Shown in pieces: positions 4,122 through 64,000 of a stretch of 64,000 nucleotides of DNA. Made by a program: the position numbers and the translations under genes. Under the pieces are notes generated by a model that saw only the letters and a list, made by a program, of their open reading frames with translations, ran no database searches and was not told where the DNA came from. Location: positions 28,963,255 through 29,027,254 of the forward strand of contig CM072919.1 in the NCBI GenBank assembly GCA_037013685.1, read 5' to 3'. Source of the stretch: Acridotheres tristis. Lineage: Eukaryota; Chordata; Aves; Passeriformes; Sturnidae. Position 1 is the first letter of the stretch; each line of letters starts with the position of its first letter.

Positions 4122-4128
4122 GATTTTT

Positions 4129-4228: not shown

Positions 4229-6143
4229 ATGCTGTCCAGCTTACCCTGGATTGGCCTCCATGTGGTCACTGCTATATCTCTCCCATTTGCAAGCCCTTTT
4301 TTAAACATGAGTTTCATAACCAAGGTTACTGTGGCTATTATCCGGTTTATTGTGTGGGTTGATCAGTTGAGGAATTCATGGATTTTTAATTTTCTCTGGA
4401 AGATGGCCACATGGATTCAGAGCTATCGCACTCTAAGTGTGTGTTTCTGGGGCTACTTCAATAATGGTACTTACTGTGAGGAAGTGGCAGCAGGTGAAAT
4501 TTTTTCTCAACGCATCACAGAGTTTTTGAAGTTCACCCCACCAGTCTTCAAGGGGTTCCAATTCGCTTTAAATGCTAATGACATTATATTGTGGCTAGTG
4601 TTGCTTATATCCCTGTTAAACCTGTTCTATCTAACATTCAGAGATAAGGGGAGATTGACTTGGATAACAACCCTGATAGCTACCCCAGGGATTAGTGATG
4701 TTACCCCAGAGCCTGATCCTGTCCCAGAGACTAGGGAGGTTATCCCAGAGCCTGATCCTGTCCCAGAGACTAGGGAGGTTACCCCAGAGCCTGATCTTAT
4801 CCCAGAGACTAGGGATATTACCCCAGAGTTTGACCCTGCCCTACAGCCCACCTCGGAAAGGAACCACCCAGAATGGGTGGGGGTGCTAGCAAAGGAGATA
4901 CGTGAGATGGGCCAGATGATGAAGGAGTACATCTCCCCAGCTGGTGAGAAACCCTCCCCCTGCCTTAAAGAGGGAGACTCTGATGGTGCAGCAGTGGGAC
5001 CCACAGATGTTACATCTGTCCAGGTTCCAGCTGAACTGCAAGGGCACTCACAGCCAGCAGCAGTTGCCCCTGTGGAAACTAGGAAGTCTAAGATGAAAAC
5101 AAGACACCTAGATAATAAGGGTCAGGAAGGGGGCCCCTCACAACCAGCAGGGGAGCCAGAAGTTGAGATCATCACCGAGTCCCTGTCATACCAGAGTCTC
5201 CGTAACCTGCTAAAAGACATTGTACGACGGGGCCGTGAGACTTTTACATCCTGGTTACTGAGGCTTTGGGACCTTATGGGTACAGGTGTGCAACTGGATG
5301 GTACTGAGGCAAGGAATTTGGGAGCCTTGACCCAGGACTCAGGTGTGGACCAGGTATTTGTAAGGGAGACAGGTCTCCTTTCCCTCTGGGAGCGACTTTT
5401 AATGAGCGTGAGAGAGAGATTTGTCCACAGGGAAAGAATGCAGGAGTACCACCAGAGAACACGTTGGAATACCCTTGAAGAAGGGATCCAAAAGCTGAGA
5501 GAAGTGGCAGTACTGGAGGTGCTCTTTGGGAGGGATGAACAGCATGACAATGACCCTGACAAGGTCAGGTGCACAGGACAGATGTTGTGGAATCTGGCAA
5601 ACCTGGGCCCATCTCAATATACCTCCTTTATTGCAATGATTGATGTTGATACCAACCAAGTGACAGTGGGTTCTGTTGCCAACAGGCTCAGGAATTATCA
5701 GAGTATGATGGCTGGCCCAATGCAGGCTCATGTCTCTGCTGTGGCTAAGGACCTCAGAGAGGAGTTTAAGGAGGAGATGAAGGAGATAAGGGAAGAGGTG
5801 AGGAAGATCAGTGCAGCACCAGTGCGAGTCATGGACCTCAAAAGTAGAGCCCAACGCCCCCCAGCTAGGGAGAGAGGGTATACCCCACGTGCTGACCTAT
5901 GGTTTTTCTACATGACCACAGGAAGACATGAGAAGGTGGGATGGGAAACCCACTTCTGTCCTGGCAGCACGGGTGCGCCAACTCAGGGAGGGGAACACCA
6001 ACAGAGGGAACTCCACTAAAGTGAAGGTAGCCTCAGCCTCCCATGGAGGTGCAGGGTATTACAGAAGGGAGGATGATCTGTCAGATCCCCTTGAAGGAAC
6101 CTCTAGTATGTATGCCCAGGAGAGAAGAAATAACCAGGGCTAG
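4229..6143 (+). pseudogene. gag: gag of provirus 1, frameshifted near its end
   Basis: The start is the ATG at 4229 (context ACACCATGC, a good initiation context). The upstream frame is open without an ATG back to the primer binding site. The product has an N-terminal hydrophobic region (about residues 5-60), the sequon NGT near residue 79, a second hydrophobic segment (about 118-137), the 13-residue acidic proline-rich repeats, a linker, and a capsid-like region starting near MGTGVQLDG with a charged helix (REEFKEEMKEIREEV) toward the end. Two single-base deletions near 5903 and 5925 shift the frame, so this copy reads into a foreign tail ending at 6019. The original frame resumes in frame 3 and ends at the TAG at 6141. 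Confidence 0.85.
4703..4837 (+). repeat. 39-bp coding tandem repeat in gag, three units plus a part
   Basis: Units 4703-4741, 4742-4780 and 4781-4819 each encode a 13-residue unit of the form TPEPDPVPETREV. A partial fourth unit (ITPEFDPA) follows. The unit length is a multiple of 3, so unit number can change without breaking gag. Confidence 0.95.
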
Positions 6144-6172
6144 AGGGGCCCTGCCTCTAGCCAGGGAGAGGC
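6138..6172 (+). promoter_or_regulatory. gag stop codon in competing hairpins (copy 1)
   Basis: The TAG at 6141-6143 lies inside a perfect inverted repeat GGCTAGAGG / CCTCTAGCC (6138-6146 and 6154-6162, 7-base loop). The 3' arm can instead form GCCTCT / AGAGGC (6153-6158 and 6167-6172), which begins 9 bases after the stop. Protease continues in the same frame with no further stop until the 6273 TGA. A read-through role is inferred. Confidence 0.6.
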
Positions 6173-9334: not shown

Positions 9335-9346
9335 TACTGTGCCTAT

Positions 9347-9899
9347 GTCTCGCTCTCGCTTGGCTCGTGGAGTGGGAAGACATCCTGGGCTTCGCTCTGG
9401 CATCTCCCCTTGCCATCCCAGCACTGAGATCCATGCTCCCTGCCATTGGACATCACTCTGCTGCTCTCCCACCTCACCCTACTATCTCTGGACGTTCTGC
9501 TGAGCACTACGACCAACACCGTGAGGTGGGGGAGTCACTTTCCCATCCCGCTCACCCCTGGGCCTCCACCGCCATCACTCCAGCCCTCTTCAACTGCGCG
9601 GGACCTGCCCTGCCCCCACAGCACCGGTAACTGAGCGCAGGGAGATGGCCTGCGGCCAAAAGGAACTAGAGCGGAGCGAGACTGTTCTGTTCTGTTCTGT
9701 TGCCAATTTTTATAGCTGTTGTTGTTTTCTGCCTTGTTAAATACCACTAAAGAACTGTTATTCTTATCCCCATATCTCCTGCCTGAAAGCGTCTGATTTG
9801 GACCTAAAATAATTAAAAGGGAGGGGGGTTGCACTCTGCATTGCAGAAAAGGGGCTCCTGCCTTTCCTTAGACCATACCTGTCTTTTCCAACCAAGACA
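9347..9899 (+). repeat. 3' LTR of provirus 1, 5'-truncated
   Basis: Only the last ~553 bp of the LTR are present. Sequence jumps from the post-pol spacer (cctatgtctc) into the middle of the LTR (ctcgcttggctcg). The post-pol spacer, polypurine tract and about 170 bp of U3 are missing. It carries three TTCTG units, against two in the 5' LTR. It ends AAGACA at 9899. Confidence 0.92.
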
Positions 9900-12684
9900 A
9901 CATGTTTGAGTAATTTCTTGAAATAACCCATAGGAAACGGGGATCATAAGTGAGCCTTTAGTAACAAGACCAACTATATTTAATTACAGTTTGAAAGAGG
10001 ACTAACGAGGAAATGGTAAAAGCTCTTTGTAGATTCATTATTAACAAAGGGAGAAAAGAGAGGCAAGGGGAAATAGCTATGATAATTAATTGTCAATGTT
10101 ATGCCCTGAGAAATCTTTTACTGAGTTCATCTTCTGGCACTCACTGCTTTTGTTTGGCAGAGGCCTCTCAATTTCTGTACTAATTCTTGCCAATGCACAG
10201 TTTTGCAATTTTGATTTAATGATTTTTTCAAAACATACAACATAGCAATGAATATTTTATTATCACATAATAAAAGGCCTCTTTTGAAGGATGTGAACCA
10301 ATTAGGTAGTTGTACCACATACCCAGCAATAATCCCAAGATAAAAAAGTAAAATATTAGAGTATCTATTTATTCTTAGTCAAATTATGTTCTATAAACAA
10401 GATAAGTTACTTCACCTTTCCTCATTTTTGTTTTCTCCTTAGGATCCCGTAAGCATTTAATTTCTGTTGCATTTTTGGGGGCAGAAACAGCATTCTAGGT
10501 AGAGTTCATACACCCTGAAGCACAGCAAATTTGTCTAGGTGGGTTCAACACATGGAAAAAAGCAATAGAGAGATCTCTCCCAGACTGAGCTAAGAAGATG
10601 CTGTATTTGAATATTCAGTCCCAAAATATCTACATATGATGTAGGTAGAGTGTGTACATGTCCCCCAGTTGTAAAATTTATTTGCTGCAAGAGTGATAGA
10701 TTCTGATAAATTAGTCTTTGTGTTGGTTTGTGTTTTAATGTTGGCAGATGATTCACTTCAGTTTATCATTGTGTATATCGGGGTGTATGGAGGTTGCTGT
10801 CTGTCCACCTGAGACCTCTTCAAGTTTTTAGTATTGTAATGTTTTTCCCTCAAGGTTAAAAATCAGCATCTCACATATTGTGATTGGACATGTGTTGCCT
10901 TTACATGAAACTTGGATTGGTATGTGTTTGGGTTTTTAAACTCTTCCTGGTTTGTAGACTCATTGTAAATATCATTGAAACTTTAAATGAAAATTGGCCC
11001 ATGCCAGAATGCAATATATTGATTGATTAAAACATTAGCAATTATAGTATATCAATTTAATGGATTCTAGATATTAGTTGTCATTACACATAGTTCTAAG
11101 TCCCTCAAGGATGTACAATGGTATTACATTTATTAGTGCACTGATATTGTCAGCTTGAAAGCTACTCTGGATCTGTCTCTGCACTCACTTCTTCCCCACT
11201 AGATCCTCTATATACAGCTTCTCCAACAAGGGGACTACTGATCCTCCTTCATTTTCCACAATTGTGCTTAAAATTTAATTATTTAGAAAACTTACACAGT
11301 TACTGTTTCTTCCTTGCTTCTTCATTCATTATGATAAACTAAATTATATAGTCTGCATTTATAGTCATGAGGAGACTAAAGCTGTGATGAATTTTAATTA
11401 CTTATACTGATTTATGTCTTAATTAGATCAAACCTGCTTTTGGAATTTTTAAGTGAGTGAGAAATAAATACCCATGCTCAAAGTTCTTCATCCTTTCTCT
11501 CTATACAACACTTCACCAAACTGATACACAGCACCACCACCAGAAGCTAATCATGACCTTAGATATACACTCTCCCATAAAGTTGGCTAAGAATTTGAGA
11601 CGGAAGCTTAAGTGTAAATGATATCTGTAGGAATGGAGAAAAAGACCTTTGATAAACCATCACATTCATGTGAAGGTAACAGATGGACTTACTAAAACTA
11701 GATCAGTAACTTATTTCTGAAGGAGGGGAAAGAAAAAAAGAAAAAGCAAGTAAATGCCCAATACAGCAGTAGCTAATTCAAAGCCATCAAAGAGACTCGA
11801 AACACAGATTCTATAAGGTCCACCTGTATTTTCCTCCATGTGATTCCCCCACTAGATAGGATGCAGCTTTCTGACCACCAGCTATTCTTGGCTGGGTACA
11901 TGAAGGGGAACCTGAGTCCACCGACTGGTCCTTAAGGAGTGAAGTGATAGCGCTGAATGACGTCTAGACTGATGTATCAGTCTGTAGTGTGCTTGACTAT
12001 CAAGACTGGGCACCTTAGGACCATAAGGCAGCTTCTTTTTGGGTTTTGTGCTCACATAATCCTCCTATGAAAATCTTTGTGGGAAAGGACAAGAAATAAA
12101 TTGTGTGTGTCTGTTTTACCACTTTGGCACTGAGCCAAGACACAGATACCATCCATGTTTATAGAGGCCTGGACCTTAAAATGAGACTATTGTTATTTTA
12201 CTATAACTTAAATTTTTAAAAGAAGGAAGCTGAAGTAGCTTTTGACTGAGAAAACACAATTCGGCAATTTCATAGCAAACTTATGACAAAATGAGCATCA
12301 GCCAAGGAGTTGATGAACAGCCAGGGGTTTACTCAACAGCAGTCATGTCATGATAGTATTAACAAAGTTTGTGGTAAGAGTGAAGGTAATACAGGCTGCA
12401 GATTGCTCGTGTGATAGCAGTCATAGTGACATTTGGAGTACAGTGTACTGCTCCTGATAGTGGTGTCACAAGCTTGATCATGTCTTCATGGATTTTTGAC
12501 ACTCCTTAATTTTATCTGCTAAAGAAACATTCCTTTCTTACTGTCTTTATCTAAAAGACAGCTACCTAAAAAATATTTATCTAATAAAATATGTTGCGTG
12601 TGCCCTGCATATGCTGTTTTTAATTTCCAAAACAAACCTTGAGAATTCTACCATGCCTACAAGAGAAAATGGCCCTTGGATGAG
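9900..12684. other. AT-rich intergenic DNA, no gene seen
   Basis: No exon, RNA gene or repeat could be recognised. Short open frames lack any family likeness. Confidence 0.5.
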
Positions 12685-17200: not shown

Positions 17201-18668
17201 TTGCATTGTCATGTAAAAGAGAATATTAGCTAGGTTAAAAACTTCAGTTTGTCTTTCATCCATATTTTAGTAAGTATTTCACAGATTAGTGACTTAATGA
17301 CTTCCTAAAGCAATGCTAAAGTGGCTGCGCTGATAATCCATTTCAGTAAAAGGGTTACTTTTAAGTTGTGGTGTAAAGGTGGTTGACAGATGGTGGTCTT
17401 TATCAAGGAAATTTTTACTTGTTTATCTAATATTTGCACATCTAGTTCTGCAGCTGATACCTATACCAATACCAGAAATAAAATTTAAAAATATAGATTG
17501 TGTGTCTGAGACTAGTTCTTCTACATGAGCAAACTGACACTGCTGAAATTTCTGAATATCACACTGATATTGGATATATTATTCAGCGTGATAAACTGAC
17601 CATGAAACCAGGATGCTGCAGTTTCAGCCCAGTAGTCTTAAAATCTACTGCCCATCTTTTTCCTGAGTAATGCTTTAGTATTGCTGTCATTTAGTTGAAT
17701 TTTTCTTATTGTGCTCACCAATTTAAATGTTTTCAAATGTTTATAGGCCAAGAATTAGTCACTGTGACTATGGAAGAGTTTGTTCTTGTTATGCTAAGCC
17801 CTACAGATACTGTCCACATGCAAGAACTTATGTGATAAAAGCCTTACCCTTAGAAGGTACACCTAGCAATATCAATGGTTCTCTACTTTTACAGGTCAAA
17901 ATACACCAGATCTAACTGCAATATTAGACTCAAAATATGGTAGTTTGAGCTAATTTTGCCAATTCTAGCAGCTGCATTTTTTCTCTACCATGTTTGTATA
18001 CTTCAATTTTAAATTAATCCCTCTGTATTCCCCTGTACAAGAATAAGTTATGTTTCTGTGTACTCCAACATCACTATGTAAATAAATCCTACCAAAGGAA
18101 TTCATGTTCACATTGAAATTTTCTTTTTGATAACATTTGTCAGATTAATAAATGTCTGCTGAAGATGTGAAATTTGATAAACTTATGTAAATATGGAATA
18201 TTCATTATTATAATAGCATATGTGCATATTTAATTTATAAATCTTAATTTATGATAGCCCTAAAACTCATTAAAATGTACTAAATTTAAATTAAGTTAGA
18301 TCATTTACATTCCTTTAGAAAAAAATTAAAAAGACAAATAGAACTATTTCAGCAATATTTTTCTGGCAGCATAGTACATGACATTGTAATCAACCTTGCA
18401 CAAGTGTTTAGGTCCAGAAATTTGGAACATGACTTGGAAGATAATTCCAGCAGCGTGAGATTCAGGTAAAAGATGAGGAAAAGAAAAAAAGCCTTTTGGT
18501 CATGGAGTTAACTAAATTGAATTTTCACAGTCTTGTAGTTCTCTCAGATACTTAGTGAGTCTGGTTATATGTCTTGTCATAGACCTTGTAGTTAGAATCA
18601 AATAACTATATAAAACAAATCAGCTTTTCTTTTTAACCTTTTTCTAACAAAGTTGCAATGTAAAGCTT
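14261..18668. other. Intergenic DNA with one GC-richer patch, no gene seen
   Basis: Mostly AT-rich. A GC-richer patch at about 14880-15290 has two overlapping minus-strand open frames (90 and 85 codons) that match no family I recognise. It could be a retropseudogene or repeat remnant. A TTG/TTTG simple repeat lies at about 15371-15415. Nothing else is recognisable before provirus 2. Confidence 0.45.
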
Positions 18669-19394
18669 TGTTGGGGGTTGGATTGTTCCCCTTTTCTTTC
18701 TGTGGAATTCTTCCCATTGTTATGCTAAGTAATTGTGACTACACCTTAAAACGACAGATAATGCTCTATCATACGGGGGTGGGTGGAGGGGGAGGGGGGG
18801 GGGAACCGGAAAAGGAAAGGTAGGAGAGGGGTCTGGAGCCGGGGCTCCCTCTCTCATGTGGCTCGTGGAGTGAAAAGGCCGCCTGGGCTCCACTCTGGCA
18901 TCTCCCCCTGCCATCCCAGCACTGAGATCCACGCTCCCTGCATTTGGACATCGCTCTGCTGCTCTCCCATCTCACCCTACTATCTCTGGATGTTCTGCTG
19001 AGCACCACGACTGACACCGTGAGGGGGGGGAGTCACTTTCCCATCCCCGCTCACCTCTGGGCCTCCGCCGCCATCACTCCAGCCATCTTCAACTGCGCGT
19101 GACCTGCCCTGCCCCCACAGCACCGGTAACCGAGCGCAGGGAGACGGCCTGAGGCCAAAAGGGACTGGAGCGGAGTGAGACTGTTCTGTTTTGTTGTCAA
19201 TTTTTATAGCTGTTGTTGTTTTCTGCCTTGTTAAATACCAGTAAAGAACTGTTATTTCACATCCCCATATCTCCTGCCTGAAAGCGTCTGATTTGGACCT
19301 AAAATAATTAAAAGGGAGGGGGGTTGCACTCTGCATTGCAGAAAAGGGGCTCCTGCCTTTCCTTAGACCATACCTGTCTTTTCAAACCAAGACA
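18669..19394 (+). repeat. 5' LTR of provirus 2
   Basis: 726 bp, TGTTGGGGGTTGG to AAGACA. The TTCTG block has a single changed unit pair (ttctgttttg). It differs from its own 3' LTR at many sites (roughly 6 percent by eye), more than the internal regions of proviruses 1 and 2 differ from each other. Confidence 0.95.
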
Positions 19395-19399
19395 GATAT

Positions 19400-19419
19400 T
19401 GGCGCCCGAAACGTGGAGC
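19400..19419 (+). other. Primer binding site, variant lysine type
   Basis: Identical to the provirus 1 site (TGGCGCCCGAAACGTGGAGC), 5 bases after the LTR. It shares the two extra bases and the G to A change relative to provirus 3. Confidence 0.8.
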
Positions 19420-19498
19420 ATTGCCTGAGGGCATTGAGAGAGGGGTAGAAAAGGGAATAACAGTTCTTGAATTACCCAAGCTTGTGGTAGGTGACACC

Positions 19499-21412
19499 AT
19501 GCTGTCCAGCTTACCCTGGATTGGCCTCCATGTGGTCACTGCTATATCTCTCCCATTTGCAAGCCCTTTTTTAAACATGAGTTTCATAACCAAGGTTACT
19601 GTGGCTATTATCCGGTTAATTGTGTGGGTTGATCAGTAGAGGAATTCATGGATTTTTAATTTTCTCTGGAAGATGGCCACATGGATTCAGAGCTATCGCA
19701 CTCTAAGTGTGTGTTTCTGGGGCTACTTCAATAATGGTACTTACTGTGAGGAAGTGGCAGAAGGTGAAATTTTTCTCAACCCATCACAGAGTTTTTGAAG
19801 TTCACCCCACCAGTCTTCAAGGGGTTCCAATCCGCTTTAAATGCTAATGACATTATATTGTGGCTAGTGTTGCTTATATCCCTGTTAAACCTGTTCTATC
19901 TAACATTCAGAGATAAGGGGAGATTGACTTGGATAACAACCCTGATAGCTACCCCAGGGATTAGTGATGTTACCCCAGAGCCTGATCCTGTCCCAGAGAC
20001 TAGGGAGGTTATCCCAGAGCCTGATCCTGTCCCAGAGACTAGGGAGGTTACCCCAGAGCCTGATCTTATCCCAGAGACTAGGGATATTACCCCAGAGTTT
20101 GACCCTGCCCTACAGCCCACCTCGGAAAGGAACCACCCAGAATGGGTGGGGGTGCTAGCAAAGGAGATACGTGAGATGGGCCAGATGATGAAGGAGTACA
20201 TCTCCCCAGCTGGTGAGAAACCCTCCCCCTGCCTTAAAGAGGGAGACTCTGATGGTGCAGCAGTGGGACCCACAGATGTTACATCTGTCCAGGTTCCAGC
20301 TGAACTGCAAGGGCACTCACAGCCAGCAGCAGTTGCCCCTGTGGAAACTAGGAAGTCTAGGATGAAAACAAGGCACCTAGATAATAAGGGTCAGGAAGGG
20401 GGCCCCTCACAACCAGCAGGGGAGCCAGAAGTTGAGATCATCACCGAGTCCCTGTCATACGAGAGTCTCCGTAACCTGCTAAAAGACTGTACGACGGGGC
20501 CGTGAGCCTTTTACATCCTGGTTACGGCGGGTCTGGGACGTTATGTGTACAGGTGTGCAACTGGATGGTACTGAGGCAAGGAATTTGGGAGCCTTGACCC
20601 AGGACTCAGGTGTGGACCAGGTATTTGTAAGGGAGACAGGTCTCCTTTCCCTCTGGGAGCGACTTTTAATGAGCGTGAGAGAGAGATTTGTCCACAGGGA
20701 AAGAATGCAGGAGTACCACCAGAGAACACGTTGGAATACCCTTGAAGAAGGGATCCAAAAGCTGAGAGAAGTGGCAGTACTGGAGGTGCTCTTTGGGAGG
20801 GATGAACAGCATGACAATGACCCTGACAAGGTCAGGTGCACAGGACAGATGTTGTGGAATCTGGCAAACCTGGGCCCATCTCAATATACCTCCTTTATTG
20901 CAATGATTGATGTTGATACCAGCCAAGTGACAGTGGGTTCTGTTGCCAACAGGCTCAGGAATTATCAGAGTATGATGGCTGGCCCAATGCAGGCTCATGT
21001 CTCAGCTGTGGCTAAGGACCTCAGAGAGGAGTTTAAGGAGGAGATGAAGGAGATAAGGGAAGAGGTGAGGAAGATCAGTGCAGCACCAGTGCGAGTCATG
21101 GACCTCAAAAGTAGAGCCCAACGCCCCCCAGCTAGGGAGAGAGGGTATACCCCACATGCTGACCTATGGTTTTTTCTACGTGACCACGGGGAAGACATGA
21201 GAAGGTGGGATGGAAAACCCACTTCTGTCCTGGCAGCACGGGTGCGCCAACTCAGGGAGGGGAACACCAACAGAGGGAACTCCACTAAAGTGAAGGTAGC
21301 CTCAGCCTCCCATGGAGGTGCAGGGTATTACAGAAGGGAGGATGATCTGTCAGATCCCCTTGAAGGAACCTCCAGTATGTATGCCCAGGAGAGAAATAAT
21401 AACCAGGGCTAG
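19499..21412 (+). pseudogene. gag: gag of provirus 2, one nonsense and two frameshifts
   Basis: Same domain order as provirus 1 gag from the ATG at 19499. It is interrupted by TAG at 19637-19639 (single-base change), loss of one T from a T run at about 19770-19774, and loss of two bases near 20488. Open segments remain at 19795-20505 and 20543-21412. The second covers the whole capsid-like region and ends at the conserved TAG (21410-21412). A full-length product cannot be made. Confidence 0.9.
19972..20106 (+). repeat. 39-bp coding tandem repeat in gag, three units plus a part
   Basis: Same three full units and one partial unit as provirus 1, with the same variant third unit (EPDLIPETRD). 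Confidence 0.95.
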
Positions 21413-21441
21413 AGGGGCCCTGCCTCTAGCCAGGGAGAGGC
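21407..21441 (+). promoter_or_regulatory. gag stop codon in competing hairpins (copy 2)
   Basis: Identical to the elements in copies 1 and 3: the 9-bp inverted repeat around TAG (21407-21415 / 21423-21431) and the alternative 6-bp stem (21422-21427 / 21436-21441). The frame after the TAG continues into protease. Confidence 0.6.
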
Positions 21442-21760
21442 ACGGGAAAACCGGATCTTTTGGACGGTGTGGATCCGATGGCCTGGCACATCAGAGCCAC
21501 AGGAACACAGAGCATTGGTTGACACTGGTTCACAATGTACATGAATACCATCGGGACATGTCGGGAAGGAATCTGATTCAATTGCTGGGGTTACGGGGGA
21601 ATCTGAGGAATTGACTTTGCTGGAGGCTGAGGTGAGCCTGACTGGGAAAGAGTGACAGAAACATCCAATTGTGACTGGCCCAGAGGCACCATGTATCCTA
21701 GGCATAGACTTCCTCAGGAACGGCTATTACAAAGACCCAAAGGGACTCAGGTGGGCTTTT
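21413..21760 (+). pseudogene. pro: Retroviral aspartic protease of provirus 2, broken
   Basis: LVDTGSQ is encoded at about 21515-21535, in frame with gag and pol. TGA at 21542-21544 follows the active-site motif by two codons, and a second TGA lies at 21653-21655. The end of the domain (ILGIDFL) is intact. Both stops are shared with provirus 1. Confidence 0.88.
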
Positions 21761-24598
21761 GGAATAGCTGCTGTGGCAGCAGAGGGCATTAAGCAGTTGA
21801 ACACCCTGCCTGGACTATCAGAAAACCCATCTGCAGTGGGACTCCTCAGGGTGAAAGAGCAACAGGTGCCAATTGCTACCTCAACAGTGCACCGCCGGCA
21901 GTACCGGACGAATCGAGATGCCGTGATCCCCATCCACAAGATGATCTGTGAGCTGGAGAGCCAAGGGGTGGTCAGCAAAACCCACTCACCCTTCAACAGC
22001 CCCATCTGGCCTGTGCGTAAATCTGAAGGAGAATGGAGACTGACAGTGGACTATCGTGCATTGAATGAGGTGGTGACTCCACCGCTGAGCGCTGCTGTGC
22101 CGGACATGCTGGAACTGCAGTATGAGCTGGAGTCCAAGGCAGCCAAGTGGTACGCCACCATTGACATCGCCAATGCATTCTTCTCCATTCCTCTGGCAGC
22201 AGAGTGCAGGCCTCAGTTTGCTTTCACCTGGAGGGGTGTGCAATACACGTGGAACCGACTGCCCCAGGGGTGGAAACACAGCCCCACCATCTGTCATGGA
22301 TTGATCCAGGCTACACTGGAGAAGGGTGGAGCTCCAGAACATCTGCAGTACATTGATGACATCATTGTGTGGGGGGACATGGCAATGGAGGTATTTCAGA
22401 AACGAGGAAAGATCATTGAGATTCTGCTGGCAGCTGGCTTCGCCATTAAAAAGAGCAAAGTCAAAGGGCCTGCCCAAGAGATCCAGTTTCTGGGAGTAAA
22501 GTGGCAAGATGGACGGCGCCAGATCCCCAGTGAGGTCATCAATAAGATCACTTCAATGTCTCGACCAACCAGCAAGAAGGAAACACAAGCCTTCCTAGGT
22601 GCCATAGGCTTTTGGAGAATGCACATTCCTGAGTACAGCCAGATTGTGAGCCCTCTTTACCTGGTCACCCGCAAGAAGAACGATTTCCACTGGGGCCCTG
22701 AGCAGCAGCAAGCCTTTGCCCAGATCAAGCAGGAGATTGCTCATGTGATAGCCCTTGGCCCAGTCAGGACAGGACCAGATGTGAAGAACGTGCTCTACTC
22801 TGCAGCCGGGAACCATGGTCTGTCCTGGAGCCTTTGGCAGAAGGTGCCTGGTGAGACGCGAGGCCGACCACTGGGATTCTGGAGTCGAAGCTACAGAGGG
22901 TCCGAGGCCAACTACACTCCAACGGAGAGGGAGATCTTGGCCGCCTATGAAGGGGTTCAAACTGCCTCAGAGGTGGTTGGCACAGAAACACAACTCCTCC
23001 TGGCACCCCGACTGCCAGTGCAGGGGTGGATGTTTAAAGGAAAGGTTTCCTCAACCCACCATGCCACTGACGCCACATGGAGTAAATGGATTGCCCTCAT
23101 CACACAACGCGCCCGTATTGGAAACCCGAATCGCCCTGGGATTTTGGAGATAATTACCAACTGGCCGGAAGGGGAAGACTTTGGTCTTGCCGACGAAGAG
23201 GAACAGGAACAAGTGACCCGGGCTGAAGAAGCCCCACCGTATAACCAACTGCCAGCAGATGAAACATGCTATGCTCTTTTCACTGATGGTTCCTGCCGCA
23301 TCGTGGGGATGAACCGGAAGTGGAAAGCAGCCGTATGGAGCCCCACACGACAGGTTGCACAAGCTACCGAAGGAGAAGGTGGATCGAGTCAACTTGCTGA
23401 ACTCAAAGCTGTTCAGCTGGCCCTGGACATTGCTGAGAGAGAGAAGTGGCCAAAACTCTACCTTTACACTGATTCTTGGATGGTAGCCAATGCTCTGTGG
23501 GGATGGCTGGAGAGGTGGAAAAAGGCTGACTGGCAACGTAGGGGAAAACCAATCTGGGCTGCCAATGAATGGAAAGGCATTGCCACCAGGATAGAGAAGC
23601 TGCCTGTGAAAGTCCGTCACGTAGATGCCCATGTCCCCAAGAGTCGGGCTAATGAGGAACACCAACACAATGAGCAGGTAGATCAGGCTGCACAGATAGA
23701 GGTGTCGAAGATAGATTTAGACTGGCAGCACAAGGGAGAGTTGTTCCTGGCTCGATGGGCCCATGATGCCTCAGGTCATCAGGGCAGAGATGCCACATAT
23801 AAGTGGGCACGAGACCAAGGGGTGGATCTAACCATGGACAGTATTTCTCAAGTTATCCATGACTGTGAGACGTGCGCTGCCATCAAGCAAGCCAAGCGGG
23901 TGAAGCCCCTCTGGTATGGGGGGCGATGGGCCAAATATAAGTATGGAGAGGCCTGGCAGATTGATTACATCACACTGCCTCAAACCTGCCAGGGCAAGCG
24001 CTATGTACTGACCATGGTGGAAGCCACCACTGGATGGTTAGAGACCTACCCTGTGCCTCATGCCACTGCTCGGAACACCATCCTGGGCCTGGAAAAACAA
24101 GTTCTTTGGAGGCATGGTACCCCTGAGAGAATTGAGTCAGACAATGGGACTCATTTCAAGAACAGCCGTATAAACACCTGGGCTAGAGAACACGGCATTG
24201 AGTGGGTGTACCATATCCCCTACCACGCACCAGCTGCAGGGAAAGTTGAACGGTGCAACGGCCTGCTTAAAACCACCTTGAAGGCACTGGGTGGGGGAAC
24301 TTTCAAGAACTGGGAGATTAATCTACCAAAGGCCACCTGGTTAGTGAACACCCGAGGTTCCACTAACCGAGCAGGCCCTGCCCAATCTGAGCCCTTGGGA
24401 ATATCAGATGGAGATAAGGTTCCAGTGGTACACATGAGAGCTATGCTAGGAAAAACTGTTTGGGTGAATCCTGCCTCCAGCAAAGACAATCCCATCCGTG
24501 GAGTTGTATTCGCTCAAGGACCAGGTTGCACCTGGTGGGTGATGCAAAAGAATGGAGAGACCCGATGCATACCCCAAGGAGACCTTGTTTTAGGGTGA
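21671..24598 (+). CDS. pol: pol polyprotein segment: RT, RNase H, integrase (open)
   Basis: 975 codons open in one frame, counted here from the first in-frame ATG after the last protease stop. That ATG is not necessarily a real start; the product would normally be made by read-through from gag. Reverse transcriptase: motif-A aspartate in IDIANAF (residue 165), LPQGWKHSPTICHG, and YIDD (227-230). RNase H: D539 (FTDGS), E577 (AELKAV), D601 (YTDSW), D671 (EQVDQA). Integrase: zinc-binding H698, H703, C732, C735 and the catalytic triad D765, D824, E860, with the canonical 35-residue spacing between the last two. All key residues are present. No dUTPase or env follows. The frame ends 108 bp before the 3' LTR. 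It resembles ERV-L pol; the exact family needs a database comparison. Confidence 0.95.
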   Translation: MTGPEAPCILGIDFLRNGYYKDPKGLRWAFGIAAVAAEGIKQLNTLPGLSENPSAVGLLRVKEQQVPIATSTVHRRQYRTNRDAVIPIHKMICELESQGVVSKTHSPFNSPIWPVRKSEGEWRLTVDYRALNEVVTPPLSAAVPDMLELQYELESKAAKWYATIDIANAFFSIPLAAECRPQFAFTWRGVQYTWNRLPQGWKHSPTICHGLIQATLEKGGAPEHLQYIDDIIVWGDMAMEVFQKRGKIIEILLAAGFAIKKSKVKGPAQEIQFLGVKWQDGRRQIPSEVINKITSMSRPTSKKETQAFLGAIGFWRMHIPEYSQIVSPLYLVTRKKNDFHWGPEQQQAFAQIKQEIAHVIALGPVRTGPDVKNVLYSAAGNHGLSWSLWQKVPGETRGRPLGFWSRSYRGSEANYTPTEREILAAYEGVQTASEVVGTETQLLLAPRLPVQGWMFKGKVSSTHHATDATWSKWIALITQRARIGNPNRPGILEIITNWPEGEDFGLADEEEQEQVTRAEEAPPYNQLPADETCYALFTDGSCRIVGMNRKWKAAVWSPTRQVAQATEGEGGSSQLAELKAVQLALDIAEREKWPKLYLYTDSWMVANALWGWLERWKKADWQRRGKPIWAANEWKGIATRIEKLPVKVRHVDAHVPKSRANEEHQHNEQVDQAAQIEVSKIDLDWQHKGELFLARWAHDASGHQGRDATYKWARDQGVDLTMDSISQVIHDCETCAAIKQAKRVKPLWYGGRWAKYKYGEAWQIDYITLPQTCQGKRYVLTMVEATTGWLETYPVPHATARNTILGLEKQVLWRHGTPERIESDNGTHFKNSRINTWAREHGIEWVYHIPYHAPAAGKVERCNGLLKTTLKALGGGTFKNWEINLPKATWLVNTRGSTNRAGPAQSEPLGISDGDKVPVVHMRAMLGKTVWVNPASSKDNPIRGVVFAQGPGCTWWVMQKNGETRCIPQGDLVLG

Positions 24599-24706
24599 AA
24601 TACCTATAGTACTGTGCCTATGTCTCTAACTGCATGTATGTATATATAATGTAACAGTTTAATTTGATATAGCATATTAGTATGGGAGAAATTCAGGGGT
24701 GGCTAA
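24599..24706 (+). other. Post-pol spacer with weak polypurine tract
   Basis: About 108 bp separate the pol stop from the 3' LTR, too short for env. A purine-rich segment (gggagaaattcaggggtgg, about 24684-24702) is the likely plus-strand primer, though it is broken by pyrimidines and four bases (ctaa) lie before the LTR TG. Confidence 0.55.
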
Positions 24707-25432
24707 TGTTGGGGGTTGGATTGTTCCCCTTTTCTTTCTGTGGAATTCCTTCCATTGTTATGCTAAGTAATTGTGGCTACACCTTAAAACGACAGATAAT
24801 GTTTTCTCGTAGGGGGGTGGGTGGAGGGGGGGGGCAACTGGAAAAGGAAAGGTAGGAGAGGGGTCTGGAGCGGGGGACTCTCTCTCACTTGGCTCGTGGA
24901 GTGGAAAGACAGCCTGGGCTCTGCTCTGGCATCTCCCCCTGCCATCCCAGCACTGAGATCCACTCTCCCTGCCTTTGGACATCGCTCTGCTGCTCTCCCA
25001 TCTCACCCTACTATCTCTGGACACTCTGCAGAGCAGCACGACCGACACCGTGAGGTGGGGGGGGAGTCACTTTCCCATCCCCGCTCACCTCTGGGCCTCC
25101 GCCGCCATCACTCCAGCCCTCTTCAACTGCGCGTGACCTGCCCTGCCCCCACAGCACCGGTAACTGAGCGCAGGGAGACGGCCTGTGGCCCAATGGAACT
25201 AGAGTGGAGCGAGACTGTTCTGTTCTGTTCTGTTGCCAATTTTTATAGCTGTTGTTGTTTTCTGCCTTGTTAAATACCAGTAAAGAACTGTTATTCACAT
25301 CCCCATATCTCCTGCCTGAAAGCGTCTGATTTGGACCTAAAATAATTAAAAGGGAGGGGGGTTGCACTCTGCATTGCAGAAAAGGGGCTCCTGCCTTTCC
25401 TTAGACCATACCTGTCTTTTCAAACCCAGACA
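24707..25432 (+). repeat. 3' LTR of provirus 2
   Basis: 726 bp, TGTTGGGGG to GACA. It has three TTCTG units and the ggaactagag / ggagcgagac variants, which it shares with the 3' LTR of provirus 1 but not with the 5' LTRs. Confidence 0.95.
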
Positions 25433-25766
25433 GCCACTCTGTTATTGAGTGGGGATCATTTGAGGGGTAGGGACCAAAGGACCCAGATTCCTTTCACCTC
25501 TCCACCATTCAACAGGATTCGGTCTCCTCCAGTTAAACAAACACACCACAAATTATCAGTTGCAGTTTTCTCTGGCTTACGACCTTAGAATTTTAGTTAA
25601 TTAGCCATCTTAATCAGAACAAATAGGGTTGGTTTTTGGGTATAATTTACCTCTCCACAGAAGGTTTTGGAGGTTTTGGAGCCTAAATAAACCTTAGTTC
25701 AACTTTTTCTACCAGACTTTGTTTCACTTTCTCTTCTTCCTGTAACTGTCCGTGCAGTTGTTCTGT
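25433..25766. other. Unassigned sequence after provirus 2
   Basis: No gene recognised. An AATAAA-like signal (cctaaataaacc, about 25684) is present, and this stretch may belong to the older retroviral remnant that follows. Confidence 0.35.
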
Positions 25767-38529: not shown

Positions 38530-39256
38530 TGTTAGGGGTTGGATTGTTCCCCTTTTCTTTCTGTGAATTCCTCCCATTATTATGGTAAGTAGTTGTGGCT
38601 ACACCTTAAAACATAGATAATGTTCTCTCGTAGGGGGGTGGGTGGAGGAGGAGGAGGGGTCGGGGGGGAACCGGAAAAGGAAAGGTGGGAGAGGGGGCTG
38701 GGGTGGGGGACTCTCTCTCGCTGGGCTCGTGTACGGAGAGGACGCCCCGTGCTTCGCTCTGGCATCTCCCCCTGACATCTCAGCGCTGAGACCCCCGCTC
38801 CCTGCCTTGGACATCGCTCTGCCGCTCTCCCATCTCACCCTACTATCTCCGGACACTCTGCGGAGCACCAAGACCGACACCGTGAGGGGGAGTCACCTTC
38901 TCACCCCCGCTCACCTCTGGGCTGCGGCCGCCATCACTCCAGCCCCTCTTCAACTGCGCGGGACCCGCCCTGCCCCCACAGCACTGGTAACCGAGCACAG
39001 GGAGACAGCCTGAGGCCAAAGGGGACTGGAGCGGAGCTAGACTGTTCTGTTCTGTTGCCAATTTTCTTATAGCTGTTGTTGTTTTCTGCCTTGTTAAATA
39101 CCAGTAAAGAACTGTTATTCCTATCCCCATACCTCCTGCCTGAAAGCGTCTGATTTGGACCTAAAATAATTAAAAGGGAGGAGGGTTGCACTCTGCATTG
39201 CAGAAAAGGGGCTCTTGCCTTTCCTTAAACCATACCTGTCTTTTCAAACCAAGACA
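38530..39256 (+). repeat. Solo LTR of the ERV-L-like family, subfamily B
   Basis: 727 bp, TGTTAGGGGTTGG to AAGACA, flanked by perfect 5-bp duplications ACATG (38525-38529 and 39257-39261). It shares with the provirus 3 LTR features not seen in proviruses 1 and 2: ggaggaggagg, ctcgctgggctcg, a gccgctctc block and ctagactgttctg. It formed by recombination between the two LTRs of a lost provirus (known mechanism). Confidence 0.96.
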
Positions 39257-60243: not shown

Positions 60244-60965
60244 TGTTAAGGGTTGAATTGCCCCCCTTTTCTTGCTGTTAATTCCTCCCATTGTTATGTT
60301 AAGTAGTTGTGGCTACACCTTAAAACGACAGATAATGCTCTCTCGTAGGGGGGTGGGTGGAGGAGGAGGAGGGGGGGGAACCGGAAAAGGAAAGGTGGGA
60401 GAGGGGGCTGGGGAGGGGACTCTCTCTCGCTGGGCTCGTGGACGGAGAGGACACCCCCGTGCTTCGCTCTGGTATCTCCCCTGACATCTCCGCACTGAGA
60501 TCCACGCTCCCTGCCTGGGACATCGCTCTGCCGCTCTCGCATCTCACGCTACTATCTCCGGACACTCTGCGGAGCACCACGACTGACACCGTGAGAGGGG
60601 GGAGTCACCTTCTCACCCCCGCTCACCTCTGGGCCTCCGCCGCCATCACTCCAGCCCTCTGCAACTGCGCGGGACCAGCCCTGCCCCCACAGCACCGGTA
60701 ACTGAGCACAGGGACACAGCCTGCGGCCAAAAGGGACTGGAGCGGAGCTAGACTGTTCTGTTCTGTTACCAATTTTCATAGCTGTTGTTGTTTTCTGCCT
60801 TGTTAAATACCAGTAAAGAACTGTTATTTCACATCCCCATATCTCCTGCCTGAAAGCGTCTGATTTGGACCTAAAATAATTAAAAGGGGGGGAGGTGCAT
60901 TCTGCATTGCAGAAAAGGGGCTTTTGCCTTTACTTAAACCATACCTGTCTTTTCAAACCAAGACA
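60244..60965 (+). repeat. 5' LTR of provirus 3, subfamily B
   Basis: 722 bp, TGTTAAGGGTTG to AAGACA. It is closer to the solo LTR at 38530 than to the LTRs of proviruses 1 and 2. The two-unit TTCTG form is present. Confidence 0.95.
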
Positions 60966-60970
60966 GATTT

Positions 60971-60988
60971 TGGCGCCCAACGTGGGGC
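60971..60988 (+). other. Primer binding site, canonical Lys1,2 type
   Basis: TGGCGCCCAACGTGGGGC, 5 bases after the LTR. From memory it matches the 18-base tRNA-Lys1,2-type site at every position. Confidence 0.88.
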
Positions 60989-61068
60989 ATTGCCTGAGGG
61001 CATTGAGAGAGGGGGTAGAAAAGAGGATAACAGTTCTTGAATTACCCAAACTTGTGGTAGGTGACACC

Positions 61069-63021
61069 ATGCTGTCCAGCTTACCCTGGATTGGCCTCCA
61101 TGTGGTCACTGCTATATCTCTCCCATTTGCAAGCCCTTTTTTAAACATGAGTTTCATAACCAAGGTTACTGTGGCTATTATCCGGTTTATTGTGTGGGTT
61201 GATCAGTTGAGGAATTCATGGATTTTTAATTTTCTCTGGAAGATGGCCACATGGATTCAGAGCTATCGCACTCTAAGTGTGTGTTTCTGGGGCTACTTCA
61301 ATAATGGTACTTACTGTGAGGAAGTGGCAGCAGGTGAAATTTTTTCTCAACCCATCACAGGGTTTTTGAAGTTCACCCCACCAGTCTTCAAGGGGTTCCA
61401 ATCCGCTTTAAATGCTAATGACATTATATTGTGGCTAGTGTTGTTTATATCCCTGTTAAATCTGTTCTATCTAACATTCAGAGATAAGGGGAGATTGACT
61501 TGGATAACAACCCTGATAGCTACCCCAGGGATTAGTGATGTTACCCCAGAGCCTGATCCAGTCCCAGAGACTAGGGAGGTTATCCCAGAGCCTGATCCTG
61601 TCCCAGAGACTAGGGAGGTTACCCCAGAGCCTGATCCTGTCCCAGAGACTAGGAAGGTTACCCCAGAGCCTGATTTTGTCCCAGAGACTAGGGATATTAC
61701 CCCAGAGTTTGACCCTGCCCCACAGCCCACCTCGGAAAGGAACCACCCAGAATGGGTGGGGGTGCTAGCAAAGGAGATACGTGAGATGGGCCAGATGATG
61801 AAGGAGTACATCTCCCCAGCTGGTGAGAAACCCTCCCCCTGCCTTAAAGAGGGAGACTCTGATGGTGCAGCAGTGGGACCCACAGATGTTACATCCATCC
61901 AGGTTCCAGCTGAACTGCAAGGGCACTCACAGCCAGCAGCAGTTGCCCCTGTGGAAACTAGGAAGTCTAGGATGAAAACAAGGCACCTAGATAATAAGGG
62001 TCAGGAAGGGGGCCCCTCACAACCAGCAGGGGAGCCAGAAGTTGAGATCATCACCGAGTCCCTGTCATACCAGAGTCTCCATAACCTGCGAAAAGACATT
62101 GTACGACGGGGCCGTGAGCCTTTTACAACCTGGTTACTGCGGGTCTGGGACCTTATGGGTACAGGTGTGCAACTGGATGGTACTGAGGCAAGGAATTTGG
62201 GAGCCTTGACCCAGGACTCAGGTGTGGACCAGGTATTTGTAAGGGAGACAGGTCTCCTTTCCCTCTGGGAGCGACTTTTAATGAGCGTGAGAGAGAGATT
62301 TGTCCACAGGGAAAGAATGCAGGAGTACCACCAGAGAACACGTTGGAATACCCTTGAGGAAGGGATCCAAAAGCTGAGAGAAGTGGCAGTACTGGAGGTG
62401 CTCTTTGGGAGGGATGGACAGCATGACAATGACCCTGACAAGGTCAGGTGCACAGGACAGATGTGGAATCTGGCAAACCTGGGCCCATCTCAGTATACCT
62501 CCTTTATTGCAATGATTGATGCTGATACCAACCAAGTGACAGTGGGTTCTGTTGCCAACAGGCTCAGGAATTATCAGAGTATGATGGCTGGCCCAATGCA
62601 GGCTCATGTCTCTGCTGTGGCTAAGGACCTCAGAGAGGAGTTTAAGGAGGAGATGAAGGAGATAAGGGAAGAGGTGAGGAAGATCAGTGCAGCACCAGTG
62701 CGAGTCATGGACCTCAAAAGTAGAGCCCAACGCCCCCCAGCTAGGGAGAGAGGGTACACCCCACGTGCTGACCTGTGGTTTTTTCTACGTGACCACGGGG
62801 AAGACATGAGAAGGTGGGATGGGAAACCCACTTCTGTCCTGGCAGCACGGGTGCGCCAACTCAGGGAGGGGAACACCAACAGAGGGAACTCCACTAAAGT
62901 GAAGGTAGCCTCAGCCTCCCATGGAGGTGCAGGGTATTACAGAAGGGAGGATGATCTGTCAGATCCCCTTGAAGGAACCTCTAGTATGTATGCCCAGGAG
63001 AGAAATAATAACCAGGGCTAG
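61069..63021 (+). CDS. gag: gag polyprotein with membrane-like N terminus
   Basis: 650 codons open from the ATG at 61069 (ACACCATGC context) to TAG at 63019-63021. The frame is open upstream through the primer binding site and LTR end, but that part has no gag likeness, so I chose this ATG. Residues 5-60 are strongly hydrophobic and aromatic. Residues 70-83 hold two cysteines and the sequon N79-G-T. A second hydrophobic stretch is at about 119-136 and is followed by basic residues. Four 13-residue acidic repeats occupy about 159-210. A capsid-like domain starts about residue 365, with a charged helix near 520-545. I see no zinc-knuckle (CCHC) motif. Class III retroelement gags vary, so the assignment rests on position and on the capsid-like region, not on a recognised motif. 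Confidence 0.85.
   Translation: MLSSLPWIGLHVVTAISLPFASPFLNMSFITKVTVAIIRFIVWVDQLRNSWIFNFLWKMATWIQSYRTLSVCFWGYFNNGTYCEEVAAGEIFSQPITGFLKFTPPVFKGFQSALNANDIILWLVLFISLLNLFYLTFRDKGRLTWITTLIATPGISDVTPEPDPVPETREVIPEPDPVPETREVTPEPDPVPETRKVTPEPDFVPETRDITPEFDPAPQPTSERNHPEWVGVLAKEIREMGQMMKEYISPAGEKPSPCLKEGDSDGAAVGPTDVTSIQVPAELQGHSQPAAVAPVETRKSRMKTRHLDNKGQEGGPSQPAGEPEVEIITESLSYQSLHNLRKDIVRRGREPFTTWLLRVWDLMGTGVQLDGTEARNLGALTQDSGVDQVFVRETGLLSLWERLLMSVRERFVHRERMQEYHQRTRWNTLEEGIQKLREVAVLEVLFGRDGQHDNDPDKVRCTGQMWNLANLGPSQYTSFIAMIDADTNQVTVGSVANRLRNYQSMMAGPMQAHVSAVAKDLREEFKEEMKEIREEVRKISAAPVRVMDLKSRAQRPPARERGYTPRADLWFFLRDHGEDMRRWDGKPTSVLAARVRQLREGNTNRGNSTKVKVASASHGGAGYYRREDDLSDPLEGTSSMYAQERNNNQG
61543..61716 (+). 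repeat. 39-bp coding tandem repeat in gag, four units plus a part
   Basis: Four full 39-base units (61543-61698) and a partial fifth, one unit more than in proviruses 1 and 2. Confidence 0.95.
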
Positions 63022-63050
63022 AGGGGCCCTGCCTCTAGCCAGGGAGAGGC
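63016..63050 (+). promoter_or_regulatory. gag stop codon in competing hairpins (copy 3)
   Basis: The TAG at 63019-63021 is within GGCTAGAGG / CCTCTAGCC (63016-63024 and 63032-63040). The alternative stem GCCTCT / AGAGGC (63031-63036 and 63045-63050) starts 9 bases downstream of the stop. Gag and protease share one frame, which suits stop-codon read-through like that of gammaretroviruses. The mechanism is inferred. Confidence 0.65.
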
Positions 63051-64000
63051 ACGGGAAAACCGGATCTTTTGGACGGTGTGGATCCGATGGCCTGGCACAT
63101 CAGAGCCACAGGAACACAGAGCATTGGTTGACACTGGTTCACAATGTACATTAATACCATCGGGACATGTTGGGAAGGAACCTGTTTCAATTGCTGGGGT
63201 TACGGGGGAATCTGAGGAATTGACTTTGCTGGAGGCTGAGGTGAGCCTGACTGGGAAAGAGTGGCAGAAGCATCCAATTGTGACTGGCCCAGAGGCACCA
63301 TGTATCCTAGGCATAGACTTCCTCAGGAACGGCTATTACAAAGACCCAAAGGGACTCAGGTGGGCTTTTGGAATAGCTGCTGTGGCAGCAGAGGGCATGA
63401 AGCAGTTGAACACCCTGCCTGGGCTATCAGAAAACCCATCTGCAGTGGGACTCCTCAGGGTGAAAGAGCAACAGGTGCCAATTGCTACCTCAACAGTGCA
63501 CCGCCGGCAGAACCGGATGAATCGAGATGCCGTGATACCCATCCACAAGATGATCCGTGAGCTGGAGAGCCAAGGGGTGGTCAGCAAAACCCACTCACCC
63601 TTCAACAGCCCCATCTGGCCTGTGCGTAAATCTGAAGGAGAATGGAGACTGACAGTGGACTATCGTGAATTGAATGAGGTGACTCCACCGCTGAGCGCTG
63701 CTGTGCCGGACATGCTGGAACTGCAGTACGAGCTGGAGTCCAAGGCAGCCAAGTGGTACGCCACCATTGACATCGCCAATGCATTCTCCTCCATTCCTCT
63801 GGCAGCAGAGTGCAGGCCTCAGTTTGCTTTCACCTGGAGGGGTGTGCAATACACGTGGAACCGACTGCCCCAGGGGTGGAAACACAGCCCCACCATCTGT
63901 CATGGATTGATCCAGGCTACACTGGAGAAGGGTGGAGCTCCAGAACATCTGCAGTACATTGATGACATCATTGTGTGGGGGGACACAGCAATGGAGGTAT
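63022..64000 (+). CDS. pro-pol: pro-pol, partial, open to the window edge
   Basis: The frame continues gag after the TAG. Protease LVDTGSQ is encoded at about 63124-63144 and ILGIDFL near 63304. Both positions that are stops in proviruses 1 and 2 are sense codons here. The reverse transcriptase follows with LPQGWKHSPTICHG and a YIDD box near 63955-63966. Small differences from provirus 2: one codon missing in the DYR..NEV block and phenylalanine to serine after motif A (AFSSIPL). RNase H and integrase lie beyond the window. Read-through expression is inferred. Confidence 0.93.

What the first reader, a model, noticed from the sequence alone, without database searches (positions are those of the whole stretch)
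63016..63050. gag TAG buried in a perfect 9-bp inverted repeat with a competing downstream hairpin
In all three proviruses the gag stop is in the protease frame, and the stop itself is part of GGCTAGAGG paired with CCTCTAGCC. The same 3' arm can pair downstream instead, forming a stem that begins 9 bases after the stop, close to the spacing of known read-through stimulators. Two mutually exclusive folds, one hiding the stop and one behind it, would make a compact translation switch for gag versus gag-pol. The sequence is identical in all three copies.
Basis: partly seen in the sequence, partly recalled or inferred. Interest (0 to 1): 0.8.

Follow-up and report, generated by a model that had tools for sequence, protein, structure and literature searches.

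The report
Retroviral stop-codon readthrough pseudoknot in birds
A family of retrovirus-like elements in a bird genome ends its gag gene with a stop codon that is probably read through now and then to make the polymerase, helped by a knotted RNA fold just behind the stop much like the one used by mouse leukaemia viruses, although these elements appear to belong to a different branch of retroviruses.

Summary
In detail: gag TAG 63019-63021 lies in a perfect 9-bp inverted repeat in all three copies, and the 3' arm can pair downstream instead. The loop of the downstream stem (S1 63030-36/63045-51, 8 nt after the stop) pairs with 63091-96 (S2), making an H-type pseudoknot of near-gammaretroviral geometry: 0 of 20,000 dinucleotide shuffles, 0.02% of 10,000 codon-preserving shuffles. 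Four families were found at DNA level in the host genome; 79 of 81 junctions chosen neither by the hairpin nor by the finding keep TAG, and S2 is complete in 78. Degenerate codons inside S1/S2 are invariant in 7 of 7 against 32 of 95 elsewhere (p=0.0008, post hoc). Most bird proteins that run through the site carry Q, K, E or Y there, each one step from TAG. The stop-hiding fold is family-specific (predicted 98%, 3%, 24%, 39% of free RNA), whereas S1 is predicted in all four once a ribosome covers the stop. No compensatory changes were seen. Best reading: pseudoknot-driven UAG readthrough in an avian class III-like element. Readthrough was not measured.

The parts
60895..63021 (+). gag open frame (708 aa) of the third provirus, ending at the TAG
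   Evidence: the ORF listing, (start codon mechanical)
63019..63021 (+). gag UAG stop, in frame with protease
   Evidence: TAG in 79 of 81 other junctions
63016..63024 (+). 5' arm of fold A (holds the stop)
63032..63040 (+). 3' arm of fold A; overlaps S1 and S2
63022..63029 (+). 8-nt spacer between stop and S1
63030..63036 (+). S1 5' arm
   Evidence: same in the usual form of all four families
63045..63051 (+). S1 3' arm (last two bases vary between families)
63027..63029 (+). CCC of the S1 base extension; pairs with 63053-63055 across a 1-nt bulge
63053..63055 (+). GGG of the S1 base extension
63038..63043 (+). S2 5' arm, in the S1 loop
   Evidence: 6 of 6 pairs in 87 of 90 places
63091..63096 (+). 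S2 3' arm
63061..63067 (+). 5' arm of nested hairpin H3 inside the long loop (not kept at codon level)
63080..63086 (+). 3' arm of nested hairpin H3
63022..64000 (+). start of the protease-RT frame (continues beyond the window)
   Evidence: protease match below Pfam's cut-off, RVT_1 3.4e-19
6138..6162 (+). same hairpin in copy 1; pseudoknot starts at 6152
21407..21431 (+). same hairpin in copy 2; pseudoknot starts at 21421

Best explanation
The site is a programmed stop-codon readthrough signal between gag and pro-pol of an apparently env-less, class III-like (spuma/ERV-L-like) avian retroelement. Most ribosomes stop at UAG and make Gag; a minority insert an amino acid and go on to make Gag-Pro-Pol. 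The stimulator is an H-type pseudoknot starting 8 nt after the stop (S1 7 bp with a GC base extension, L1 1 nt, S2 6 bp, 1-nt junction, long loop of 39 nt). In this family the free RNA mostly sits in fold A, which uses the same 3' arm; the arriving ribosome opens fold A and thereby frees the arm for S1 and S2. Shown: sequence, frame, conservation of stop and stems, synonymous constraint. Predicted: the folds. Inferred: readthrough itself, its rate, and the ribosome-driven refolding.
For: In-frame TAG in four families: 79 of 81 junctions chosen neither by the hairpin pattern nor by the finding have TAG, the others TAC and TTG. Among 21 bird proteins matched at the site, Q 7, K 6, E 5, Y 3, each one step from TAG or TAA, none one step from TGA. 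Gag proteins of thrush, crow, ibis and stork end exactly at this codon. Pseudoknot with spacer 5-9, S1>=7, S2>=6: 0 of 20,000 dinucleotide shuffles, 0.02% of 10,000 codon-preserving shuffles. Of 8 such pseudoknots on both strands of the window, 3 are at the three gag stops +8 and 5 lie outside the proviruses. Synonymous constraint: S1/S2 codons 7 of 7 invariant across one copy of each family against 32 of 95 elsewhere, p=0.0008; family 1 v 2, codons 1-26, 15 of 18 against 50 of 111, p=0.002. Uncommon codons are used there (Pro CCT twice; 6 of 41 Pro codons elsewhere). S1 forms with P 0.94-0.98 in all four families when stop..+5 is left out of the fold. Geometry near that of five gammaretroviral rows seen in a published table. 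First in-frame ATG lies after the protease DTG in the copy read of each family, so a separate start would lose the protease active site.
Against: No compensatory covariation: the observed score is below the shuffled mean and reached by 500 of 500 shuffles; conservation is by invariance. The families are related, not four independent tests, and the copies were picked by protease/RT similarity, which favours well-kept ones. S1 is weaker in family 2 (5-6 bp plus base). The codon classes were drawn after the fold was known; family pairs f1-f3 (14/22 v 60/114, p=0.24) and f1-f4 (15/21 v 81/119, p=0.49) show no significant excess, f2-f4 is borderline (p=0.053). H3 codons 0 of 3 invariant. The long loop is 39 nt, against 17-19 in the gammaretroviral rows. 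Under relaxed limits a pseudoknot near the stop arises in 1.2% of codon shuffles. RNA from just after the stop is not unusually stable (z -0.7). No Rfam readthrough family matched. Three further proteins with the motif include one R at the site. Readthrough was not measured.
Confidence: 0.7

Rival explanations
1. Readthrough driven by a plain hairpin: S1 (with its GC base) is the stimulator and the S2 pairing is coincidental or minor.
For: S1 plus base is strong on its own (-16.6 kcal/mol in family 1). The S2 3' arm encodes part of the conserved peptide WIRWPGT, so part of its invariance may be protein constraint.
Against: S2 is complete in 87 of 90 places; its codons CCT GGC are the same in the four families although CCA is the commoner Pro codon elsewhere (29 of 41); 0 of 20,000 shuffles give the joint fold.
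Confidence: 0.12
2. One reading: fold A versus downstream stem as a regulated on/off device setting the Gag to Gag-Pol ratio.
For: Both folds exist and exclude each other; in free RNA fold A is predicted at 98% in family 1. The MuLV signal is reported in equilibrium with an inactive form, 6% active (passage of PMC4178896).
Against: Fold A is not kept: 3%, 24% and 39% in families 2-4, and 81.9% of its cells paired against 98.7% for S2. A ribosome at the stop has already melted it (inference). No signal that would throw the switch is known.
Confidence: 0.1
3. Pol is made from a spliced mRNA, as in foamy viruses: CCCTGCCTCTAG/CC is a 3' splice site that skips the stop, and its conservation explains the invariant codons.
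For: The stretch looks like an acceptor, and several swallow gene models appear to splice into it (P0002, P0105, P0149). The nearest solved Pol relatives look like foamy-virus Pol.
Against: Does not explain the invariant S2 3' arm some 50 nt further on, nor an in-frame TAG that is kept; no in-frame ATG before the protease DTG in the copy read of each family; gene models are predictions that have to avoid the stop.
Confidence: 0.08

Closest known systems
Gammaretroviral gag UAG readthrough pseudoknot (MuLV type)
   Same: In-frame UAG between gag and pro-pol, 8-nt spacer, H-type pseudoknot with 1-nt L1 and 6-7 bp S2, a reported active/inactive equilibrium (PMC4178896 passages; PMC3835772 passages and table rows)
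   Different: Long loop 39 nt instead of 17-19, with a hairpin in it in families 1 and 2; S1 7 bp instead of 8-9; a competing hairpin that pairs the stop codon itself; element looks spuma/ERV-L-like, not gammaretroviral; readthrough unmeasured
OVEX1 (chicken endogenous retrovirus with a zebra finch homologue, PMC2717909)
   Same: Avian, Gag without zinc finger, amber codon between Gag and Pro-Pol in one frame, suppression presumed (passages)
   Different: Has a third, env-like protein; the words pseudoknot, hairpin and secondary structure do not occur in its main text; no sequence comparison was made here
XtERV-S (frog class III ERV, PMC8278194)
   Same: Class III, gag and pol in one frame with a stop between, YIDD, no Gag zinc finger (passages)
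   Different: Stop is TGA; has env; the word pseudoknot does not occur in its main text
Foamy viruses
   Same: Apparently the nearest solved Pol relatives (that these entries are foamy is recalled); no Gag zinc finger (as stated in PMC8278194)
   Different: Foamy pol has its own start codon in another frame (PMC8278194 passage); here same frame and no usable ATG

Membership tests
Retroviral in-frame stop readthrough sites | Gag stop in the same frame as pro-pol, kept across family members | tested here: met
   79 of 81 junctions TAG; Q/K/E/Y at the site in 21 of 21 protein rows
Retroviral in-frame stop readthrough sites | Gag and Gag-Pol both made from one mRNA at a set ratio | not testable with these tools
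   needs reporter, ribosome profiling or protein data
Gammaretroviral readthrough pseudoknot | 8-nt spacer between stop and pseudoknot | tested here: met
   8 in family 1; depends on where S1 is taken to begin in families 2-4
Gammaretroviral readthrough pseudoknot | H-type pseudoknot with L1 1-2 and S2 6-7 | tested here: met
   L1 1, S2 6 in family 1; a fold prediction only
Gammaretroviral readthrough pseudoknot | S1 of 8-9 bp | tested here: not met
   7 bp (10 with the bulged GC base); values
Gammaretroviral readthrough pseudoknot | long loop of 17-19 nt | tested here: not met
   39 nt; values
Gammaretroviral readthrough pseudoknot | purine-rich 8-nt spacer (from a reference title seen) | tested here: not met
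   five purines, then CCC
Gammaretroviral readthrough pseudoknot | match to the Rfam gag/pol readthrough families (names recalled: GP_knot1, GP_knot2) | tested here: not met
   3 matches at E<=5 in 62900-63300, none of them these
Gammaretrovirus | gammaretroviral RT | tested here: inconclusive
   Pr125Pol and peptidase A9/RT entries (foamy, recalled) score 8.8e-25 to 2.9e-23, MMLV-type RT 9.6e-21; no tree was built
Class III (spuma/ERV-L-like) ERV | spuma-like RT with YIDD | tested here: inconclusive
   YIDD present, best solved hits as above; no tree was built
Class III (spuma/ERV-L-like) ERV | Gag without zinc knuckle | tested here: met
   no zinc-knuckle family in the last 323 aa of Gag
Class III (spuma/ERV-L-like) ERV | dUTPase at the end of pol (some members) | not tested
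   pol beyond RT was not examined
Foamy virus pol expression | pol with its own start codon in another frame, from a spliced mRNA | tested here: not met
   same frame; first in-frame ATG at codon 126, 45, 177, 177 in one copy of each family, DTG at codon 37; splicing itself not testable

The most novel reading that the evidence does not exclude
A readthrough pseudoknot of near-gammaretroviral geometry exists in an avian class III lineage, arisen independently or kept from a common ancestor, and in the most abundant family nearly all free RNA sits in an alternative fold that pairs the stop codon itself, so that the translating ribosome, by melting it, triggers formation of its own stimulator.
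Probability: 0.35. Interest if true: 0.65.

Novelty: new variant of a known kind. Interest (0 to 1): 0.52.

Why it matters
In the survey read here in passages (PMC3835772), pseudoknots behind the gag stop were found in the gammaretroviruses examined and not detected in the two epsilonretroviruses. A conserved pseudoknot of similar layout in a spuma-like lineage would widen that mechanism to another branch of retroviruses and ask whether it is ancestral or convergent. It also offers families of near-identical copies in a bird, where reporter and RNA-probing tests are direct, and a clean case for asking whether a stop-pairing fold tunes readthrough.

Tried and rejected
Identity of the three copies as evidence: rejected, too close. 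Frameshift instead of readthrough: rejected, the frame is open across the TAG in the copy read of each of four families. Dimerisation loop: fold A's apical loop holds GGCC in families 1, 3 and 4 but not in family 2, so not pursued. A known Rfam element: none. H3 as a conserved part: not supported at codon level (0 of 3). Covariation as proof: looked for, not found. Relatives in viral contigs and genome contigs: none confirmed. The MuERV-L paper PMC5930517 was searched only for stop and readthrough words; its two passages say nothing on the gag-pol stop. A count of all junctions in the genome by a looser pattern did not complete (the TAG-specific form). A search with P0003 did not complete. Structure prediction, fold search and the phrogs, ncbifam and padloc libraries were not used.

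Results against the protein tally: of the 21 rows one (P0160, Q) has upstream residues that do not look like a Gag end; P0142 (Q) fits but was missed by the pattern. In the third search three more proteins hold the motif (P0169 Y, P0171 K, P0173 R), none with a typical Gag end before it; R is not one step from TAG, and P0173 looks spliced. The looser pattern gave 35 rows with spurious matches and was not used. P0129 ends two residues before the site.

Rows dropped before counts: one search kept only ungapped 92-base matches, so L007 and L008 (12-nt deletion) fell out; L039-L041, L043 and L044 have no junction in the stretch held; L089 and L090 are downstream pieces; several loci of one place were merged. 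Of 90 places, the stop tally of 81 leaves out six found by the hairpin pattern and the three of the window. L092, a mixed junction, is counted in family 3.

Full report
WHAT IS THERE. The window holds three related proviruses (about 3402-9904, 18668-25433 and 60241 to beyond the end) and a solo LTR at 38530-39256; the alignment of copies 1 and 2 stops at their LTRs, so they look like separate insertions. The distance between the LTRs of copy 2, about 5.3 kb, is taken up by gag and pol and leaves no room for env (arithmetic). In copy 3 gag is a 708-aa open frame ending at TAG 63019-63021 and protease-RT follows in the same frame. RT matches RVT_1 (3.4e-19); protease matches retroviral protease below Pfam's cut-off. 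The best solved relatives are Pr125Pol and peptidase A9/RT entries, which I recall as foamy viruses, ahead of MMLV RT. No zinc-knuckle family was found in the last 323 residues of Gag. I take it as a class III, spuma/ERV-L-like, env-less element; no tree was built.

THE OBSERVATION. The 9-bp repeat around the stop is real and present in all three copies. RNAfold puts it in the best fold of 63010-63140 (z -2.8), but without the bases up to and including the stop the downstream RNA is not unusually stable (z -0.7). A perfect stem of 9 bp or more including the stop arises in 0.075% of 20,000 dinucleotide shuffles and in 0.11% of 10,000 codon-preserving shuffles.

THE PSEUDOKNOT. Listing helices in 63010-63140 showed another strong one: GCCAGG 63038-43, in the loop of S1, with CCTGGC 63091-96. 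S1 and S2 together form an H-type pseudoknot: spacer 8, S1 7, L1 1, S2 6, 1-nt junction, long loop 39 nt with a nested hairpin (H3), weaker in families 3 and 4. None of 20,000 dinucleotide shuffles had such a pseudoknot 5-9 nt after the stop; 0.02% of 10,000 codon-preserving shuffles did, and 1.2% under relaxed limits. A scan of both strands of the window found 8 pseudoknots of the strict class; three are these, and the five others lie outside the proviruses. In the table rows seen of PMC3835772, gammaretroviral readthrough pseudoknots have spacer 8, S1 8-9, S2 6-7, L1 1-2 and a 17-19 nt loop.

RELATIVES AS PROTEINS. A search with the protease-RT piece found 1183 proteins; 120 were listed, and the named ones among these are from birds. 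A second search aimed at the junction gave 56, a third 66. Among the proteins at hand after the second search, 21 have a residue before [RG][GC]PASSQ: Q 7, K 6, E 5, Y 3, from swallow, white-eye, crane, stork and ibis (names). All four residues are single-base neighbours of TAG (or TAA), none of TGA, and Y is not a neighbour of the Q, K or E codons CAG, AAG and GAG, so a lost TAG/TAA stop is the simplest common ancestor. Gag proteins of Turdus, Corvus, Theristicus and Mycteria end exactly at this codon. Exceptions, among them one R and one doubtful row, are told under Tried and rejected.

RELATIVES AS DNA. The host genome (1.04 Gb, 85 contigs, held without a name) has 243 exact copies of the 25-nt hairpin and none of the reversed control. 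Protein-guided searches (only the best candidates are scored) and short fetches gave four families. After merging there are 90 distinct junctions: 36, 38, 12 and 4. Of the 81 that come neither from the hairpin pattern nor from the window, 79 have TAG, one TAC and one TTG. S2 is complete in 87 of 90 (78 of the 81) and the 5-bp S1 core in 88 of 90 (79 of the 81). Fold A has all 9 pairs only in family 1; family 2 has at most 7 and families 3 and 4 have 8 in the plain register, or 9 with a one-base bulge (by eye).

RNA-LEVEL CONSTRAINT. One copy of each family was compared codon by codon. Between families 1 and 2, same-residue degenerate codons 1-26 after the stop are identical in 15 of 18, against 50 of 111 in the next 152 codons (p=0.002). 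The excess is also seen for f2-f3 (14/17 v 59/115, p=0.014) and f3-f4 (19/22 v 77/119, p=0.035), is borderline for f2-f4 (14/18 v 60/110, p=0.053), and is not significant for f1-f3 (p=0.24) and f1-f4 (p=0.49). Across all four, codons whose degenerate base lies in S1, its base or S2 are invariant in 7 of 7, other junction codons in 4 of 10 (H3 0 of 3), and the rest in 32 of 95 (p=0.0008 for 7 of 7 against 32 of 95); all junction codons together are 11 of 17 (p=0.017). The class was defined after the fold was known. The invariant Pro codons are CCT, which makes up 6 of 41 Pro codons elsewhere. A protein-only constraint on PASSQ and PG would not fix these choices.

WHAT DOES NOT SUPPORT IT. On 38 distinct haplotypes 94.6% of cells pair (S2 98.7%, H3 95.1%, S1 with base 91.8%), above slid versions (28-49%), which is partly expected because the fold was derived from one of these sequences. 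There is no excess of compensatory change: the covariation score (0.069) is below the shuffled mean (0.077) and reached by every shuffle. Fold A pairs in 81.9% of cells, likewise without compensation. The evidence is invariance plus codon choice, not covariation.

HOW IT MOST LIKELY WORKS. In a pseudoknot-free partition function the free RNA sits in fold A with probability 0.98, 0.03, 0.24 and 0.39 in families 1-4. With the stop and the next five bases left out, as if covered by a ribosome at the stop, S1 forms with probability 0.98, 0.94, 0.94 and 0.98. So the conserved state is the downstream structure met by the terminating ribosome, and fold A is a family-specific competitor that the ribosome itself removes (inference). 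In MuLV a comparable signal is reported in equilibrium with an inactive form, 6% active, giving 5-10% readthrough (PMC4178896, passages). I infer that UAG is read through at some per cent here; the amino acid inserted is not known.

RIVALS. A spliced pol mRNA is a serious alternative: the stretch resembles a 3' splice site and some swallow gene models appear to use it, but it leaves the S2 3' arm unexplained, and the first in-frame ATG lies behind the protease active site.

NOVELTY. In-frame stops between gag and pol with presumed suppression are already described for the avian OVEX1 (PMC2717909, passages) and the class III frog XtERV-S (PMC8278194, passages); the word pseudoknot occurs in neither main text. 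Searches of the open library combining ERV-L, class III, avian or bird ERV terms with readthrough, stop-codon or pseudoknot terms listed no title or abstract start that describes one; of the listed papers I looked at passages of seven. The library lacks most subscription journals. I therefore call it a new variant of a known kind.

Noticed in passing
window 3574-4121 v 9347-9899; 18669-19395 v 24707-25433: The two LTRs of copies 1 and 2 differ by about 6% and 7.5%, while the two copies are 97.5% alike over 6 kb: suggests recombination or conversion between copies. Copy 1 also seems to lack the first part of its 3' LTR.
   Followed up: no
G000, places and family 1 rows: Many scattered copies share the same protease-RT score, and 30 of the 36 family 1 junctions (92 nt) are one haplotype: suggests a recent burst of copying in this bird.
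   Followed up: partly
L007 and L008 (C1, about 23 kb apart): Both carry the same 12-nt deletion that removes the S1 3' arm, so they may be a local duplication.
   Followed up: no
codons 180-239 after the stop, family 1 v L009: A stretch of RT differs at 5 of 180 bases between two families that differ at 123 of 456 bases in codons 27-178: possible recombination between families or strong constraint.
   Followed up: no
L092: Junction with a family-4-like upstream part and a family-3 downstream part: recombinant or intermediate.
   Followed up: no
window 60971-60988: The sequence behind the 5' LTR resembles a tRNA-Lys type primer site (recalled, not tested); copies 1 and 2 differ there.
   Followed up: no
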